Of a DNA stretch of 56,370 nt, positions 20,459 to 31,527 are shown piece by piece. This DNA comes from Candidatus Peribacteria bacterium (lineage in GTDB: Bacteria; Patescibacteriota; Gracilibacteria; Peribacterales; Peribacteraceae): contig VGKY01000006.1 of NCBI GenBank assembly GCA_016866875.1, positions 1-56,370 of the forward strand. The letters are read 5' to 3'. Made by a program: the position numbers and the translations under genes. The notes beneath the pieces are model-generated. The model had not been told where the DNA came from. It ran no database searches and saw nothing but the letters and a program-made list of their open reading frames with translations. How positions within the stretch are numbered: the stretch's first letter is position 1; each line of letters opens with the position of its first letter.

Positions 20459-22210
20459 TTAATGGGAAGTCTGGTCATCGTTCTTCCGAGTGCAGAGGTA
20501 GTTTTCCAGCACCAGATAGTCCATTTTCGAATCCAAGAAGGTCTTAATGGCATCTTCTGGAGAGCAGACAATCGGCTCTTGGACATTGAGAGACGTATTG
20601 AGAACCATCGGAATCCCCGTCAGCTTTCGGAACTCTTCGATCAATTGCCAGTATTCAGGCGAAGTCTCTTTGCTCACTGATTGGATGCGGCTCGTGTCAT
20701 CGACGTGAACCACGGCAGGAATCAAGTGTTTCTTATTGGCCTTCGTTTTGAAGGCCATGAGCATGTACTTCGCCGGGTCAGGAATTGTGCGTCCAGTCTC
20801 AAACCACCGCTGCACATGCTCTTCAAGGACGCTTGGAGCCAACGGACGGAAGTCCTCACGCCTCTTCACTTTACTATTGATCCAATCCATCGCTTCTCTA
20901 TGTCTTGGGTCCGCAAGAAGGCTCCTGTGACCAAGTGCACGGGGACCGGCTTCCATTTTCCCTTGGAACCATGCAATGAGCTTTCCATCCGCAAGTAGTT
21001 TGGCAGTTGCTTCTGCCATTTTTTCGACAAACCTGTATTCCACGGCATCGCCATGCGCTGCCAATACTTCTGCGATATTTTCGTTTGCATACTGCGGTCC
21101 TTGGTAGGCATGAGGCACGGGTGTAGGTCTGTCGAGACCCAAAACATCTGTGTGAATCTGGAAAGCTGCACCCACTGCACCTCCTGCATCGTTCGCCGCA
21201 GGTTGGATGTAGATTTCATCGAACAATCCTTCCTCGGCCAATCTCGCATTCGATGCGACGTTGAGAGCAGTGCCTCCCGCCATACACAGTCTGCGTTCAC
21301 CCGTTTGCTCTTTGACCTCTTTGGCAAGGTTTAACACAACTTCTTCCGTGACACGCTGCAAGGCAGCGGCGATGTTCTTGTGCTTCTGCGTCAGCGGTTC
21401 TTCCTTCTTGCGACGAGCAATACTGAAGAGTTGTTCTATTTTGGTGAAGTCTCCTGTGCGGAACAGCATAATTTCGTTATTGACCTTGAAGGTTCCGGGC
21501 AGAGAGGAATCAACGATCATCCGGATACCCGGAAGTTCGTTATCAGCATCTCCGCAGGACGCTAAACCCATCACCTTCTCTGCGTCGTACTCGCTGAACC
21601 CAAGGAATTCCGACATCTTTTCCCAAAGGAAACCAATGGAGTTCGGATAATCAATTTCGCTCAGCTCACTGATCTCTTTTCCTTTGCCTGCGCCAATCCA
21701 CGTACTCTTCGATTCCCCAATTCCATCGACGATCAGGATGGCAGCGGAAGGGAAACCCGAAGAATGATATGCGCCAGCGGCATGAGCGACGTGGTGCTTC
21801 ACGTAATGGAAGATCGATGAAATATCTCTGTGGAAGAGTTCATTCAGCTTCTGCACCGCTCGCTGATTGCTTTCGAAGAACGCCTGTTCGCCTTCCGGTG
21901 TTCCCCAGCTGCCCGCCGCAATGTCGTGACCATTATCTGCACCGACCTGTTGGCGCAGACGTTCCTCCGGTTGGAAGTTGTAGGCAATCGCATCGATTTT
22001 ATCGAGATCGATTCCAGCAGCCTCAACACAGTAACGAATGGAGGCGACAGGAAGGTCATCCGCATTATCGACTCGCGCAGGCTTGGAGTGCTTCTTCCTA
22101 TTCAATCGCTCTTCCTCAATGAAAGAGATCAGTTCTCCGTTCTTCACAATGCAGGCGGAGCTTTCATGGTAGGCGCTATTGATGCCGAGGATGTGTACTG
22201 GTCTATTCAT
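20459..22210 (-). CDS. NodU/TobZ-type O-carbamoyltransferase
   Basis: 583 aa from the ATG at 22210 (MNRPVHILGINSAYHESSAC). The N-terminal Kae1-like domain has the metal-binding KHHVAHAAGAYHSSGF around 138-153 and VDGIGE. The C-terminal YrdC-like domain has FQGKMEAGPRALGHRSLLAD and NTSLNVQEPIV. The family transfers a carbamoyl group from carbamoyl phosphate, via carbamoyl-adenylate, to a hydroxyl of a sugar, antibiotic or nodulation factor. First gene of an operon with the amidohydrolase and divergent from a TrmB-like regulator 123 bases away. The substrate may be a sugar or nucleoside; nothing in the window identifies it. Confidence 0.92.
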   Translation of the reverse strand: MNRPVHILGINSAYHESSACIVKNGELISFIEEERLNRKKHSKPARVDNADDLPVASIRYCVEAAGIDLDKIDAIAYNFQPEERLRQQVGADNGHDIAAGSWGTPEGEQAFFESNQRAVQKLNELFHRDISSIFHYVKHHVAHAAGAYHSSGFPSAAILIVDGIGESKSTWIGAGKGKEISELSEIDYPNSIGFLWEKMSEFLGFSEYDAEKVMGLASCGDADNELPGIRMIVDSSLPGTFKVNNEIMLFRTGDFTKIEQLFSIARRKKEEPLTQKHKNIAAALQRVTEEVVLNLAKEVKEQTGERRLCMAGGTALNVASNARLAEEGLFDEIYIQPAANDAGGAVGAAFQIHTDVLGLDRPTPVPHAYQGPQYANENIAEVLAAHGDAVEYRFVEKMAEATAKLLADGKLIAWFQGKMEAGPRALGHRSLLADPRHREAMDWINSKVKRREDFRPLAPSVLEEHVQRWFETGRTIPDPAKYMLMAFKTKANKKHLIPAVVHVDDTSRIQSVSKETSPEYWQLIEEFRKLTGIPMVLNTSLNVQEPIVCSPEDAIKTFLDSKMDYLVLENYLCTRKNDDQTSH

Positions 22211-27583: not shown

Positions 27584-27769
27584 TTACTTCCTGCCCTTTG
27601 CCGAAGCGACGAACTGTTCCTCGGTCATGGCGGGCGACACGCGGCGCACTTTCGAGAGGATCTGCTCCCTCGCCATGCCCGTCATCGAGGCGTACTGGGC
27701 TCGGAGCTTTTCCAGTTTCGCCTGTCGCTTGCGGCGTGCGTGGATTTCGCGTTGTCGGATGCGGGACAT
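27584..27769 (-). CDS. Small basic protein, DUF6800-like
   Basis: 61 aa: a very basic first half (MSRIRQREIHARRKRQAKLE, KLRAQYASM) and a short second domain (REQILSKVRRVSPAMTEEQF). This layout, a basic helix followed by ILxKVxxVSP, matches a short conserved protein common in Patescibacteria, possibly nucleic-acid or ribosome associated. It converges on the P-type ATPase gene, 17 bases from its stop. The family name is from memory of the pattern and unverified. Confidence 0.6.
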   Translation of the reverse strand: MSRIRQREIHARRKRQAKLEKLRAQYASMTGMAREQILSKVRRVSPAMTEEQFVASAKGRK

Positions 27770-27865: not shown

Positions 27866-27893
27866 TTGACATAAATATATTTTTCAATATATT
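27866..27893 (+). promoter_or_regulatory. Sigma-70 type promoter of mini-unit 1
   Basis: -35 TTGACA at 27866-27871, 16-base spacer, -10 TATATT at 27888-27893. The same hexamer spacing recurs in units 2 and 3. Transcription would start near 27900, just before the structured leader. Confidence 0.7.
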
Positions 27894-27899
27894 TTTTCC

Positions 27900-28003
27900 G
27901 TTCTTTTACAGCTTGCGTTGGGGTGTTTGCAGCAAATCGCCTGACATGTATCGCTTGGCGGAGTGCCGGGCAGGTCAGACACTGTTTGTTGCAATGGACC
28001 CCA
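27900..28003 (+). promoter_or_regulatory. Structured 5' leader of mini-unit 1 (candidate cis-acting RNA)
   Basis: Nested helices are visible. Outer helix TGGGGT (27919-27924) with ACCCCA (27998-28003). Second helix GCAGCAAA (27929-27936) with TTTGTTGC (27985-27992), one G-U pair. Inner CTGAC (27941-27945) with GTCAG (27974-27978), enclosing a small GGC/GCC hairpin. The leader ends about 17 bases before the ATG of the small ORF; its ribosome site AAAGGAG lies just outside the outer helix. Nearly identical to leader 2 from the CTTTTACAG box to the outer helix. No known riboswitch class recognised. Confidence 0.7.
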
Positions 28004-28020
28004 GAAAAGGAGCATCGAAG

Positions 28021-28182
28021 ATGACGAACGTCATGGATGACCGGGAACGTGTCTTGTGGCGTCTGGAGCAGATGGAAAAGGAAGGCACCATCGACAAGTT
28101 TGATTTTGCCGTCCTACACATTCTGCGAGTGTCGCTTTTGACACTCTCAGATGCCATTAGACTGGCGGATATTCTGGTCTAG
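28021..28182 (+). CDS. Small ORF of mini-unit 1, paralogous to unit 2 ORF
   Basis: 53 aa, starting MTNVMDDRERVLWRLEQMEK. The ribosome site AAAGGAG is about 9 bases upstream of the ATG at 28021. All-helical prediction. RLEQMEKEGTIDKFDFAVLH aligns with RLRKRRESGEIDEFNHVVLS of the unit 2 ORF, so these are paralogs. The frame is also open through the leader, but the promoter position argues that the leader is untranslated. No domain recognised. Confidence 0.6.
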   Translation: MTNVMDDRERVLWRLEQMEKEGTIDKFDFAVLHILRVSLLTLSDAIRLADILV

Positions 28183-28193
28183 TCTGGGAGCCC

Positions 28194-28220
28194 GACCCGG
28201 CGACCGCAAGTCGCCGGGTC
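28194..28220 (+). terminator. GC-rich hairpin ending mini-unit 1
   Basis: Perfect 11-bp stem GACCCGGCGAC/GTCGCCGGGTC with a 5-base loop, 11 bases after the ORF stop. There is no good U tract after it, so it is a terminator-like or 3'-protective hairpin. Unit 2 has a related stem. Confidence 0.6.
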
Positions 28221-28264
28221 AACCTTTCGCGCCTACGGACGCTGTGTCGTAAGGGCAAAGGGAC

Positions 28265-28292
28265 TTGACATTTATCACATAATCAATAGAAT
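28265..28292 (+). promoter_or_regulatory. Sigma-70 type promoter of mini-unit 2
   Basis: -35 TTGACA at 28265-28270, 16-base spacer, -10 TAGAAT at 28287-28292. The whole stretch through ACGGCTCTTTTACA is shared with unit 3 with few changes. Confidence 0.75.
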
Positions 28293-28298
28293 GTTACG

Positions 28299-28402
28299 GC
28301 TCTTTTACAGCTTGCGTTGGGGTGTTTGCAGCAAACCGCCTGACATGTATCGCTTGGCGGAGTGCCGGGCAGGTCAGACACTGTTTGTTGCAATGGACCC
28401 CA
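28299..28402 (+). promoter_or_regulatory. Structured 5' leader of mini-unit 2 (candidate cis-acting RNA)
   Basis: Outer helix TGGGGT (28318-28323) with ACCCCA (28397-28402). Second helix GCAGCAAA (28328-28335) with TTTGTTGC (28384-28391). The inner region is as in leader 1. It precedes the ribosome site GAGGAGA and the ATG at 28420. About 100 of the leader bases are identical to unit 1 although the surrounding ORFs have diverged, which points to selection or recent copying of the leader itself. Confidence 0.7.
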
Positions 28403-28419
28403 GATCGAGGAGAGTTCGT

Positions 28420-28587
28420 ATGGAAAGTCGTAGTGATACGATCGCTAGGCTGCGAAAGCGGCGAGAATCCGGTGAGATTGATGAGTTTAATCATGTGGTA
28501 CTCAGTTTTCTCGAGGGCTCAGAGATTAGTATCGAGAGGGCCTTTGAAGAAGCGGACCGATTGGCCAGCGAATCTTCATTGGATTGA
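28420..28587 (+). CDS. Small ORF of mini-unit 2, paralogous to unit 1 ORF
   Basis: 55 aa, starting MESRSDTIARLRKRRESGEI, with ribosome site GAGGAGA about 7 bases before the ATG. Charged and helical. Related to the unit 1 ORF across most of its length (IDxF...VVLxxL then a helix ending EADRLA). No domain recognised; possible small regulator or one half of a protein-protein pair. Confidence 0.6.
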   Translation: MESRSDTIARLRKRRESGEIDEFNHVVLSFLEGSEISIERAFEEADRLASESSLD

Positions 28588-28600
28588 TCTGGGGGGCGAA

Positions 28601-28623
28601 CCCGGCGGCTTTCAGCCGCCGGG
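28601..28623 (+). terminator. GC-rich hairpin ending mini-unit 2
   Basis: Perfect 9-bp stem CCCGGCGGC/GCCGCCGGG with loop TTTCA, 13 bases after the stop. It shares the CCCGGCG core with the unit 1 hairpin while the paired bases next to the loop differ. No U tract. Confidence 0.6.
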
Positions 28624-28653
28624 ATCTCCCTTATGGAGGTAGACAGGGGAGTC

Positions 28654-28681
28654 TTGACATTTATCAACTAATCAATAGAAT
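28654..28681 (+). promoter_or_regulatory. Sigma-70 type promoter of mini-unit 3
   Basis: -35 TTGACA at 28654-28659, 16-base spacer, -10 TAGAAT at 28676-28681, the same geometry as units 1 and 2. Confidence 0.75.
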
Positions 28682-28687
28682 GTCACG

Positions 28688-28773
28688 GCTCTTTTACATG
28701 ACACTGTGGGGTATTTGCAGCGCATTTGGCAGTTGGTGGAGTTGCCAAACGGAATGCACTGCAATGGACCCCA
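28688..28773 (+). promoter_or_regulatory. Structured 5' leader of mini-unit 3, diverged but with the same helices
   Basis: Shorter than leaders 1 and 2 by 18 bases between the flanking boxes. The outer helix is unchanged: TGGGGT (28707-28712) with ACCCCA (28768-28773). The second helix has different bases but still pairs: GCAG and GCA (28717-28720, 28722-28724) with TGC and CTGC (28755-28757, 28759-28762). The inner hairpin is replaced by TTTGGCA (28725-28731) with TGCCAAA (28743-28749). Pairing kept while the sequence changes on both strands supports a functional RNA fold. Ribosome site GGAGGAG and ATG 28791 follow. Confidence 0.7.
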
Positions 28774-28790
28774 AACGGAGGAGTTGTAGA

Positions 28791-29174
28791 ATGAGATTAC
28801 GTCAGCATAGGGAGGATGCGCTGACCGAGCGCTTGCTCTCGCATCTCGCGAGCGCCGACGCTCGCAATTGGAAGCTGAGTCTCTACGAGACGAAGCTGCT
28901 CAATGCTCTACGCGCGGGCATGCGGTTTGTGCAAGCGGACCTTTGGGTACGGTTCGCAACTCTGACCCCAGAGGAGCGTGAGCTTCTCAAACACCTTTCG
29001 ATGGGGTTTGGGCAGCTGCGCATGCTCCTGCACCGCTTGGAGGATATCGGTCGCCTGACCGATCCCCGCCAGCGCGTGACCCTCGCGGCTATCCGCGAGG
29101 GATGCAAAGACCCCTACCAGATTCAGTGGTATCTGGAGCTCTTCGGGCCGCCGATCGTTACTGAGGCTGCGTAG
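28791..29174 (+). CDS. ORF of mini-unit 3, helical protein of unknown function
   Basis: 127 aa from the ATG at 28791, preceded by GGAGGAG at 28777-28783. Predicted all-helical: LTERLLSHLAS, ETKLLNALRAGMRFVQADLW, LTPEERELLKHLSMGFGQLR, MLLHRLEDIGRL, and a C-terminal half resembling a small winged-helix or HTH (VTLAAIREGCKDPYQIQWYL). The in-frame extension back to 28584 reads through the promoter and leader and was rejected. No family recognised. Its leader and promoter tie it to units 1 and 2. Confidence 0.65.
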   Translation: MRLRQHREDALTERLLSHLASADARNWKLSLYETKLLNALRAGMRFVQADLWVRFATLTPEERELLKHLSMGFGQLRMLLHRLEDIGRLTDPRQRVTLAAIREGCKDPYQIQWYLELFGPPIVTEAA

Positions 29175-29197
29175 GGGAGGGGGAGTTTGGGTCTCAC

Positions 29198-29226
29198 GCC
29201 GGCGTGCTTGCACGCCGGCTCTTTTA
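29198..29226 (+). terminator. Rho-independent terminator of mini-unit 3
   Basis: Perfect 9-bp stem GCCGGCGTG/CACGCCGGC (29198-29206, 29211-29219), loop CTTG, followed by TCTTTTAT. It ends the plus-strand array directly before the stop of the convergent HTH gene. Confidence 0.8.
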
Positions 29227-29229
29227 TGA

Positions 29230-31452
29230 TCAGAGGTTTTTTTGAAGGATTGCAATGTCTTGCGTAGTCAGTCCCGGGAGGTTCCAGGGTGTCATTGCGG
29301 CTTGTGGGAATCTCTGCTTCCACGCGCGAAATGCCGCGCGCTTCCGGCCGCGATTGTTGAGAAGGAGATGCACCCATCCCCATTGCAGTGTTCCCTTCCC
29401 AATATCTGCGGCAAGGAGGATCTCGGGCAGCGTGCAGGGCAATTTCTCCGGAGCCACCGTGGTCGATGAGTCGATGAGTTTGATCATCTGTGTGAGACTA
29501 TCAGCTGCACTCGAAGCGGGCATACGGTCTCTTGCGAAGCGCGACATCGACGTGCCGACCCGCCCGATGCAGTGCAGGATCGCAGCCGAGAGCGGTGCGT
29601 GCTTGCGTGGTTGCATGATCCACTTGGGGATTGGGTGGAGTGCCGGGTACTGCGCTTCGATCTCCGGTGGCACGACGAGCTTTCCCTGAAGCTGCAGGGC
29701 GAATCTTTCCGCCCAGTCTTTTTCGAGAGCCTTGCATGCGCGCTTGTCGACAACTCCTCCGGAGCCTAGGAGATGTTGCAGCACTGGGAGAGAAGGGACT
29801 TCTATGCCATCCGCGTAGCGACGGATGTGGAAAGCTGTGCAGTACGCTCGGATACTTGGATCTGCGATCACACTTTGCTCTTTCGCAAGGCGATGCAGCG
29901 GTCCGAATTCACGGGGCTTATGCGCTCTTCTCGCATCCGCCGCATCTTCTGCCATGCGAACCATTGCTTCTGTAATGCTACGTGGCGCGGTGTAACTGTC
30001 GCGATGTTCAATGGCAGTACGAGCCCTCTGCATTCCAAGATGATTGATCACTGTACGCAGATGCCCCTGCAGGATTTCCTCTCGCCGTGTGTTGTGCGGT
30101 GAAGTGCAACTTAGATGTGACTGTTCGTTTTCTGCGCGCATCAGAATTTGTTGTGGCCAATGCTTGCGCTCTTTGCGCAGGGCGGTGATTGCAGGAAGGG
30201 CATCACCCCATATTTCAGCATCGTTCTTCGCTGGTTTGCTATTGAGAGTCCTGGAAAGAACCCCGTTCGTTATTCCCCATTGTTCGCGCTCCAGACGTAC
30301 GGGGTTATCAAACGTCGGGTAGCCCATCCGCCTGCGCCAGAGGGAGCGGTTTTCCCTAAAGGTCCGGATGAGTGCTCGTATCTCGCCTTGCGTGCTTCCG
30401 ACGATATGTGCGAGAACCGCTGGAGGGGCTTCTGTATTCGTATCGGACTTTCCTTCGATGATGGGGTCGCGCATCAGCATGGAAGGACTCGTTCCCTCGG
30501 CGCCGAGGATACGTTTCATTTTTAGATCTGAGAATCCACGATGATGTTGCATGCGCAGGAGTTCCGTATGGAAATCGGGACGCCCTGATTCCTTCGCAAA
30601 ATCCCTTGTCCACTGTTCCCGAAAATCCGCCAGATCATCTGCGTTGATGAAGGATCTCGCGATGCCCTGTGCATCTTCCCACGGCGTCATTTTGAATCTA
30701 CTGATGAGCGTTGCTGGAGTTGGTTTTGTGTTGCGGAGCATTTTGCGGCTACTCAAGAGGTCGGATTGCTGTAGCTCTGCCTGTACATGCAGTTCTGCGA
30801 GTGATGGGGGAACACCCCGTTTCTCTGTGAGAATGCTTCGTGCTTCACTTGCCCAAACACTTTGCAAACGTTCGATGGTGAATGTTTCATCGCAATTCTC
30901 TTTAGCTACAGCAATACGTAGCAGAGGTGCAAATGGCGGGATGTAGGGCTTGTCTCGGTACGCACGTACGGCATCGAGCGTGGTGCCCCTGTTGGATTCC
31001 ACGGCGCCCTTGCCGTAGCGATATTCGTATTCCATATACAACCCCTCGATGGTTCCCTTGCGTCTGCCGAGGATGGCATCGATCGCCGTTTGGACGTGCT
31101 CTTTGGTGACGATAGCATGGTGTTGCCGCCAGTAATCCAGCAGCGCATGCACCGTCGTGTAGCGCCAGTCGAGAGTGTGCGCATGCGAGGCTCTCTCCAT
31201 GACTTTGATCGTGCTGCGGTCGATGCCCGTCTCCTGCGAATACTGCTTGCGGCCGAGGTGCAGGAGCTTCCAGCGGATAGCGGCAAGGAGTGAACAGACA
31301 GTGCTTCCTTGTTGGACAACATCGTTGAAAATCGTGTTGTTGCGGATTACCCGATCGGGGCGGTCATTGGATCCAACGAGAAATTCCTTCTCTTCCACCG
31401 GTGCGATGAGTGCATGGAGTTCTTTCGTTGAGAGCGTGCTGGGATTCAGCAT
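29230..31452 (-). CDS. Large multi-helical protein with XRE-like HTH, paralog of the 33.9-36.0 kb gene
   Basis: About 740 aa from the ATG at 31452 (MLNPSTLSTKELHALIAPVE); upstream codons to 31521 overlap the divergent promoter region. Residues about 55-110 (AAIRWKLLHLGRKQYSQETG, IDRSTIKVMERA, HALLDYW) read as a lambda-repressor/XRE-type helix-turn-helix. Further Arg-rich helical repeats may be degenerate copies. The C-terminal part contains LSAAILHCIGR and LPEILLAADIGKGTLQWGWV. Both ends align with the downstream gene at 33924: RWSLLHL near residue 52, and AILLAADI near the end. No signal or membrane segment. Likely a nucleic-acid-binding protein working with the helicase-like ATPase; family unknown. 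Confidence 0.75.
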   Translation of the reverse strand: MLNPSTLSTKELHALIAPVEEKEFLVGSNDRPDRVIRNNTIFNDVVQQGSTVCSLLAAIRWKLLHLGRKQYSQETGIDRSTIKVMERASHAHTLDWRYTTVHALLDYWRQHHAIVTKEHVQTAIDAILGRRKGTIEGLYMEYEYRYGKGAVESNRGTTLDAVRAYRDKPYIPPFAPLLRIAVAKENCDETFTIERLQSVWASEARSILTEKRGVPPSLAELHVQAELQQSDLLSSRKMLRNTKPTPATLISRFKMTPWEDAQGIARSFINADDLADFREQWTRDFAKESGRPDFHTELLRMQHHRGFSDLKMKRILGAEGTSPSMLMRDPIIEGKSDTNTEAPPAVLAHIVGSTQGEIRALIRTFRENRSLWRRRMGYPTFDNPVRLEREQWGITNGVLSRTLNSKPAKNDAEIWGDALPAITALRKERKHWPQQILMRAENEQSHLSCTSPHNTRREEILQGHLRTVINHLGMQRARTAIEHRDSYTAPRSITEAMVRMAEDAADARRAHKPREFGPLHRLAKEQSVIADPSIRAYCTAFHIRRYADGIEVPSLPVLQHLLGSGGVVDKRACKALEKDWAERFALQLQGKLVVPPEIEAQYPALHPIPKWIMQPRKHAPLSAAILHCIGRVGTSMSRFARDRMPASSAADSLTQMIKLIDSSTTVAPEKLPCTLPEILLAADIGKGTLQWGWVHLLLNNRGRKRAAFRAWKQRFPQAAMTPWNLPGLTTQDIAILQKNL

Positions 31453-31527
31453 AAAGGGGGCTATCCTCCCACAGTGTTGCGCCGTGTCAATTATTCTTCT
31501 CCTACGATCACACACTGACATCTTTTC

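What the first reader, a model, noticed from the sequence alone, without database searches (positions are those of the whole stretch)
27866..28791. Three tandem mini-units share a structured 5' leader with compensatory base changes: candidate new cis-acting RNA
Each unit has a TTGACA/TAtaaT-like promoter with a 16-base spacer, a leader that keeps the outer helix TGGGGT/ACCCCA, and a ribosome site just outside that helix. The second helix is GCAGCAAA/TTTGTTGC in units 1 and 2 but GCAG-GCA/TGC-CTGC in unit 3. The inner hairpin is also replaced by TTTGGCA/TGCCAAA. Sequence changes on both strands while pairing is kept. The ORFs behind the leaders differ more than leaders 1 and 2 do. This looks like a regulatory RNA, or a leader that is recognised by the adjacent HTH/helicase proteins. 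Counter-evidence: the leader frame is open in all three copies and its spacer length differs by 18, a multiple of three, so a coding leader is not fully excluded.
Basis: partly seen in the sequence, partly recalled or inferred. Interest (0 to 1): 0.88.

Follow-up and report, generated by a model that had tools for sequence, protein, structure and literature searches.

The report
Structured mRNA units encoding tiny proteins
A group of uncultured, very small bacteria (Peribacteria) carries compact mini-genes whose messenger RNAs fold into a conserved hairpin in front of a tiny new protein and can also pair their front with their tail, an arrangement known from toxin mRNAs that control when they are translated; here the encoded protein is of a different, unknown kind.

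Summary
Three tandem units (27866-28220, 28265-28623, 28654-29219) each have a TTGACA-16-TANNNT promoter, structured leader, ribosome site and small ORF. I found four more units in three related genomes: two at the syntenic locus of Greene1014_49, one elsewhere in a third congener, one in another genus (Peribacteria nzgw387). Across seven leaders, 14 of 22 pairs change on both sides with 95.5% paired (0/500 column shuffles). Three leaders have stops in all frames, so a coding leader is rejected. The stated helices are mostly right, but unit 3's TTTGGCA/TGCCAAA hairpin is not conserved; a GGA-loop hairpin is. The ORFs form one new family (predicted three-helix bundle, pLDDT 93). No Rfam, Pfam, PHROG or NCBIfam family fits; genome searches found it only in these four genomes. 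Best reading: an mRNA that switches translation by alternative and end-to-end pairing, working like hok/AapA mRNAs but not shown to be a toxin system. The link to adjacent helicase/HTH genes is not supported.

The parts
27866..27893 (+). unit 1 promoter TTGACA-16-TATATT
27902..27910 (+). unit 1 conserved 5'-end CU-rich motif TCTTTTACA, able to pair with the ribosome site (P0)
27919..28003 (+). unit 1 structured leader: P1 27919-27924/27998-28003, P2 27927-27936/27985-27994, GGA-loop hairpin 27954-27969
28005..28012 (+). unit 1 ribosome site AAAAGGAG
28021..28182 (+). unit 1 ORF, 53 aa, predicted three-helix bundle
28183..28188 (+). unit 1 post-stop strand TCTGGG of the long-range helix (partner CCCAGA 28000-28005)
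28194..28220 (+). unit 1 terminator-like hairpin (T-poor tail)
   Evidence: sequence
28265..28292 (+). unit 2 promoter TTGACA-16-TAGAAT
28301..28309 (+). unit 2 CU-rich 5'-end motif
28318..28402 (+). unit 2 structured leader: P1 28318-28323/28397-28402, P2 28326-28335/28384-28393, GGA-loop hairpin 28353-28368
28407..28412 (+). unit 2 ribosome site GAGGAG
28420..28587 (+). unit 2 ORF, 55 aa, same family
28586..28594 (+). unit 2 post-stop strand GATCTGGGG of the long-range helix (partner CCCCAGATC 28398-28406)
28601..28623 (+). unit 2 terminator-like hairpin
28654..28681 (+). unit 3 promoter TTGACA-16-TAGAAT
28690..28698 (+). unit 3 CU-rich 5'-end motif
28707..28773 (+). unit 3 structured leader: P1 28707-28712/28768-28773, P2 28715-28727/28752-28764, GGA-loop hairpin 28733-28748
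28777..28783 (+). unit 3 ribosome site GGAGGAG
28791..29174 (+). unit 3 ORF, 127 aa, longer all-helical version; its N-terminal part aligns weakly with the small ORFs
29185..29193 (+). unit 3 post-stop strand GTTTGGGTC of the long-range helix (partner CCCAAAC 28770-28776, one bulge)
29198..29219 (+). unit 3 intrinsic terminator

Best explanation
Each unit is a self-contained, roughly 390-base mini-gene: promoter, short mRNA with a structured leader, ribosome site, small three-helix protein, terminator-like hairpin. The leader RNA is a translational switch. The 3' strand of its outer helix (ACCCCA) and the bases up to the ribosome site can pair either with TGGGGT at the start of the leader (P1, open state) or with TGGGGTC-like bases just after the stop codon (long-range helix LR, closed state, ending close before the ribosome site). 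[quoted passage not shown] Translation is thus held off on new and full-length mRNA and allowed when P1 wins, by 3'-end trimming, by a protein bound at the P1/P2 internal loop or GGA hairpin, or by a ribosome ending at the stop. Shown: P1 and P2, the LR complementarity, the promoter pattern, the protein family and its narrow range. Inferred: which state is on, the trigger, and what the protein does.
For: Seven homologous units in four genomes of two genera. Leader covariation: 95.5% of cells paired, 14 of 22 pairs with changes on both sides, 0/500 shuffles as good; sliding the partner drops pairing to 29-43% (the alignment was fitted to the structure). An independent arm-swap test of hand-paired P2 arms gives 5/720. 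G-U pairs are frequent and the minus strand scores only 20.9 bits against 102.8, so the + strand RNA is what is kept. LR: total duplex energy -117.5 against -77.4 for shuffles (0/1000) and 2/5040 arm swaps; best of 735 leader/downstream window pairs in an anchor-only scan; five columns change on both sides. LR and P1 share the ACCCCA strand, which would explain why P1 is nearly invariant. LR folds lie 0.4-2.7 kcal/mol from the optimum in u2, A, B and C. P0 complementarity exceeds shuffles (4/1000 and 2/1000). One-to-one pairing of leader and ORF family.
Against: Computed full-length folds prefer P1 over LR in most units, so LR needs kinetics or a factor. LR is short in u1 (6 bp) and weak in D. 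P0 has no covariation (2966/5040 swaps) and is weak in B and D. Only seven sequences, two nearly identical; LR was noticed by eye before it was tested. No expression data.
Confidence: 0.5

Rival explanations
1. Protein-bound leader of the CsrA kind: CsrA binds the GGA hairpin loop and the GGA of the ribosome site and represses translation.
For: Every one of the seven leaders has GGA in the apical loop although the stem under it changes; the ribosome site is GGAG in all; CsrA genes occur in 51 of 74 family genomes, in all four carriers at least as a weak hit. Upstream GGA plus ribosome-site GGA is the described CsrA arrangement (PMC4005645).
Against: The high-affinity loop is ANGGAX (PMC4005645); these loops have G where the A is expected. 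CsrA is far more widespread than the element and is weak in the two genomes with most copies (33.7 bits in G000; 24.6, below cut-off, in G009).
Confidence: 0.15
2. Autoregulation: the small three-helix protein binds its own leader and shuts off its translation.
For: Leader and ORF family occur only together, 7 of 7; the protein is small, helical and predicted with high confidence.
Against: No RNA-binding fold found by Foldseek (best E 5.5); the proteins are acidic to neutral in most units (pI 4.2-7.8, u3 9.4) and diverge more than the leader.
Confidence: 0.15
3. Type I toxin-antitoxin module: the small protein is toxic and an antisense RNA silences it.
For: Architecture like hok and AapA3 mRNAs: tiny ORF, CU-rich stretch facing the ribosome site, 5'-3' long-distance pairing, several copies per genome (PMC6733600).
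Against: The products look like soluble three-helix proteins with low 19-residue hydropathy (at most 1.8), not membrane peptides; no minus-strand promoter match except one 9/12 match in unit C.
Confidence: 0.12
4. The inverted repeats are DNA features of a mobile cassette (recombination sites), not RNA.
For: The unit is present or absent at the same site: G008 has 386 extra bases between RelA-like and TPR genes relative to G007; copies lie in three different surroundings.
Against: G-U pairs and the strong strand asymmetry favour RNA; no integrase, terminal repeats or target duplications seen; promoter and ribosome site sit at nearly fixed distances from the helices.
Confidence: 0.05
5. Coding leader: the open frame through the leader is an N-terminal extension.
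For: Frame open and in phase with the ORF in u1, u2, u3 and A.
Against: Stops in all three frames in B, C and D; the promoter lies directly upstream of the leader in all seven.
Confidence: 0.02

Closest known systems
AapA/IsoA type I toxin mRNAs of Helicobacter (PMC6733600)
   Same: Small monocistronic ORF, several copies per genome, CU-rich elements that can mask the ribosome site, and a 5'-3' long-distance interaction in the full-length mRNA.
   Different: Product is a soluble-looking three-helix protein of 53-127 aa rather than a 30-aa toxic peptide; no antisense RNA found; the long-range helix here abuts the ribosome site instead of covering it and competes with a covarying leader helix.
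hok/sok family mRNAs
   Same: Covarying alternative pairings between the 5' region and the mRNA 3' end; about 50-aa ORF; multiple copies.
   Different: No membrane peptide, no conserved mok-like leader ORF, no antisense promoter found; no sequence similarity (no Rfam match).
CsrA/RsmE-regulated leaders such as hcnA (PMC4005645)
   Same: GGA in a hairpin loop upstream and GGA in the ribosome site.
   Different: Loop lacks the A of ANGGAX; the near-invariant outer helix and the long-range helix are not part of that class.
Narrow candidate structured RNA motifs found by comparative genomics (as in PMC8632094, PMC11109978)
   Same: Leader RNA with covariation in front of one gene family, not in Rfam.
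   Different: Only four genomes; the gene behind it is itself unknown.

Membership tests
Any Rfam family | Covariance-model match at gathering score | tested here: not met
   no family match; best chance hits E 0.28 and above.
hok/sok or AapA/IsoA type I toxin-antitoxin | 5'-3' long-distance pairing in the toxin mRNA | tested here: met
   (complementarity and covariation only; pairing itself not shown).
hok/sok or AapA/IsoA type I toxin-antitoxin | Small hydrophobic membrane-active peptide | tested here: not met
   three-helix bundle, maximum 19-residue hydropathy 0.5-1.8.
hok/sok or AapA/IsoA type I toxin-antitoxin | Antisense RNA from an opposing promoter | tested here: inconclusive
   no consistent minus-strand promoter, but this is a consensus scan only.
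hok/sok or AapA/IsoA type I toxin-antitoxin | Toxicity of the product | not testable with these tools
CsrA-regulated mRNA | GGA in a hairpin loop and in the ribosome site | tested here: met
CsrA-regulated mRNA | ANGGAX loop consensus | tested here: not met
   Loops read G[UC]GGA[GC]; consensus from PMC4005645.
CsrA-regulated mRNA | CsrA present in the carriers | tested here: inconclusive
   present in G000, G008, G042; below cut-off and partial in G009.
Known small-protein family | Profile or fold match of the ORF products | tested here: not met
   nothing above a curated cut-off; weak SHOCT, AbiEi and NarL hints only. Foldseek PDB best E 5.5.
Coding leader | Open frame conserved in homologues | tested here: not met
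   stops in all frames in units B, C, D.

The most novel reading that the evidence does not exclude
A new class of bistable mRNA in Peribacteria: the same leader strand switches between a leader helix and a helix with the 3' end, closing the whole ORF into a loop, to time production of a new family of soluble three-helix proteins, that is, an end-to-end mRNA switch that is not part of a toxin gene.
Probability: 0.3. Interest if true: 0.75.

Novelty: new variant of a known kind. Interest (0 to 1): 0.55.

Why it matters
Little seems to be described about RNA-based regulation in Patescibacteria (a search for Peribacteria with riboswitch found no paper). This element gives a compact, portable test case: a leader RNA with strong covariation, a competing end-to-end helix, and a new small protein family found only with it. 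If the switch is real, fold-back control of mRNA is not restricted to toxins, and could be looked for in other small-ORF genes by scanning for covarying pre-ribosome-site and post-stop segments.

Tried and rejected
P0 (5' CU-rich end with ribosome site): complementary beyond shuffles but without covariation, kept only as an inference. Unit 3 hairpin TTTGGCA/TGCCAAA: not conserved. Weak CM hits in G068 and G067 judged false: no unit promoter or small ORF. Pattern hits in Desulfobacterales, Deferribacteraceae, Croceitalea, Chryseobacterium and a gammaproteobacterium did not hold up to the model. No viral-contig pattern match, no phage DNA match. Integron cassettes (attC) considered: no GTTRRRY/RYYYAAC boxes at the helix ends, so dropped on sequence reading. 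Link to the 763-aa/780-aa neighbours: only at one of the loci, and these two proteins share just one stretch of about 120 residues. The unit 3 structure model is of low confidence (pLDDT 70) and was not searched.

Full report
What is there. The window lies in a 1.12-Mb genome (G000:C6). In the window three tandem units start at 27866, 28265 and 28654, spaced 399 and 389 bases. Each has TTGACA, a 16-base spacer, TATATT or TAGAAT, then after about 7 bases a conserved YTCTTTTACA, the leader helices, GGAG 7-8 bases before ATG, a small ORF and a terminator-like hairpin (one passes the terminator scan).

Homologues. A first model from unit 3 and the two units of G009 (R1) found unit C in G008; a model from six leaders (R2) found unit D in another genus (G042, E = 1.4e-6). 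All four additional units have the same 16-base promoter spacing and a small ORF. Units A and B (G009, L007 2300-2996) are syntenic with the window: by sequence, a homologue of the DUF6800 gene lies on the left in both. Unit C (G008, L015 3278-3599) lies between a RelA-like and a TPR gene; in G007 and G010 those two genes are adjacent without it, G008 having 386 more bases there than G007, one unit length. Unit D (L031 5042-5386) lies between ftsH and a tRNA-Leu-like sequence. Searches of 353 genomes of the class, 380 drawn from the phylum and 40 of the family with lax filters found no other unit; the collection of 84,980 species genomes gave only two known carriers as true pattern matches (the pattern would miss variants such as B and C).

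Is the leader an RNA? On the seven-sequence alignment 95.5% of cells are paired, 14 of 22 pairs have changes on both sides, and no shuffle reaches this. That alignment was fitted to the structure, so I also paired the second helix by hand: swapping 3' arms among units does as well in 5 of 720 permutations. The most telling change is in unit D, where TTTGCAG...TTGCAA has become TTTGGAG...TTCCAA. G-U pairs are common on the + strand, and the reverse strand scores 20.9 bits against 102.8, so RNA of the + strand is what is conserved. The reading frame is not: three units have stops in all frames. Rfam holds nothing like it.

The helix that was missed. Just after each stop codon lies a TGGGG-like stretch complementary to the 3' strand of the outer helix and to the unit-specific bases between it and the ribosome site: CCCCAGATC/GATCTGGGG in unit 2, AGACCCCAGTT/AACTGGGGTCT in A, GACCCCAGTCTG/TAGATTGGGGTC in C, CCCAAAC/GTTTGGG in unit 3. 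Total duplex energy is -117.5 kcal/mol against a shuffled mean of -77.4 (0 of 1000 as good) and 2 of 5040 arm swaps. I saw this by eye, so I repeated it blind to the motif: of 735 pairs of windows anchored only on start and stop codons, this pair had the largest excess over mismatched units, and near-identical window positions had the lowest total energy. Five columns change on both sides; the column two bases after CCCCA is A-U in u1-u3, U-A in A and C, C-G in B. The same ACCCCA strand serves both helices, so they exclude each other, and this would explain why the outer helix hardly varies. Computed energies put the long-range fold 0.4-2.7 kcal/mol above the optimum in u2, A, B and C, about 5-6 in u1 and u3, 15 in D.

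The proteins. The ORFs of u1, u2, A, B, C and D align over their whole length and give a confident three-helix bundle (pLDDT 92.7) without a convincing match in the PDB or in Pfam, PHROGs, PADLOC or NCBIfam. A profile finds them only behind these leaders. Unit 3 encodes a 127-residue all-helical protein whose N-terminal part aligns weakly with them; its weak hits to AbiEi and to a NarL model fit a helix-turn-helix-like repeat, no more. Leaders 1 and 2 are about 95-99% identical while their ORFs share a third of residues, which suggests gene conversion of the leader.

How it may work. Described mRNAs with this plan are those of type I toxins: in AapA3 mRNA CU-rich elements mask the ribosome site during transcription and a long-distance 5'-3' interaction keeps the full-length mRNA silent until its 3' end is trimmed, as in hok (PMC6733600). 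Here the 5'-terminal CTCTTTT is complementary to the ribosome site beyond shuffles although it shows no covariation, and the long-range helix ends close before the ribosome site. I therefore propose translational control by alternative pairing. That it works like hok or AapA is an inference from anatomy; membership is not claimed, because the products are not membrane peptides and no consistent antisense promoter was found. A protein trigger is open: the GGA loop suggests CsrA, which most genomes of the family have, but the loop lacks the A of the ANGGAX consensus (PMC4005645). The 1:1 link of leader and ORF would also fit autoregulation.

Verdict. A real, new, narrowly distributed cis-acting RNA with a second covarying long-range helix and its own protein family; mechanism inferred, function of the protein unknown.

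Noticed in passing
window 27902-28013 and 28301-28413: Leaders 1 and 2 are nearly identical while their ORFs are only about 33% identical in amino acids: probable gene conversion or recent copying of the leader.
   Followed up: partly
window 29230-31521 (-), L007 3052-5394 (-): Large proteins (763 and 780 aa) without any Pfam or PHROG match flank the units at the shared locus; they are alike over only about 120 residues.
   Followed up: partly
G000:C1:98736-98903 (L017), G009:C44:7039-7134: CsrA is unusually divergent in the two genomes with most units (33.7 and 24.6 bits) against about 70 bits or more in congeners.
   Followed up: no
window 21497-21583 (-): ARAGORN calls a tRNA-Arg (gcg) inside a long ORF that Rfam's tRNA model does not report; probably false.
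   Followed up: no
L015 3637-3655: A run of N masks the 3' end of unit C, so its terminator cannot be read.
   Followed up: no
window 27584-27769 (-): DUF6800 gene beside the units, with a homologue at the syntenic locus of Greene1014_49.
   Followed up: no
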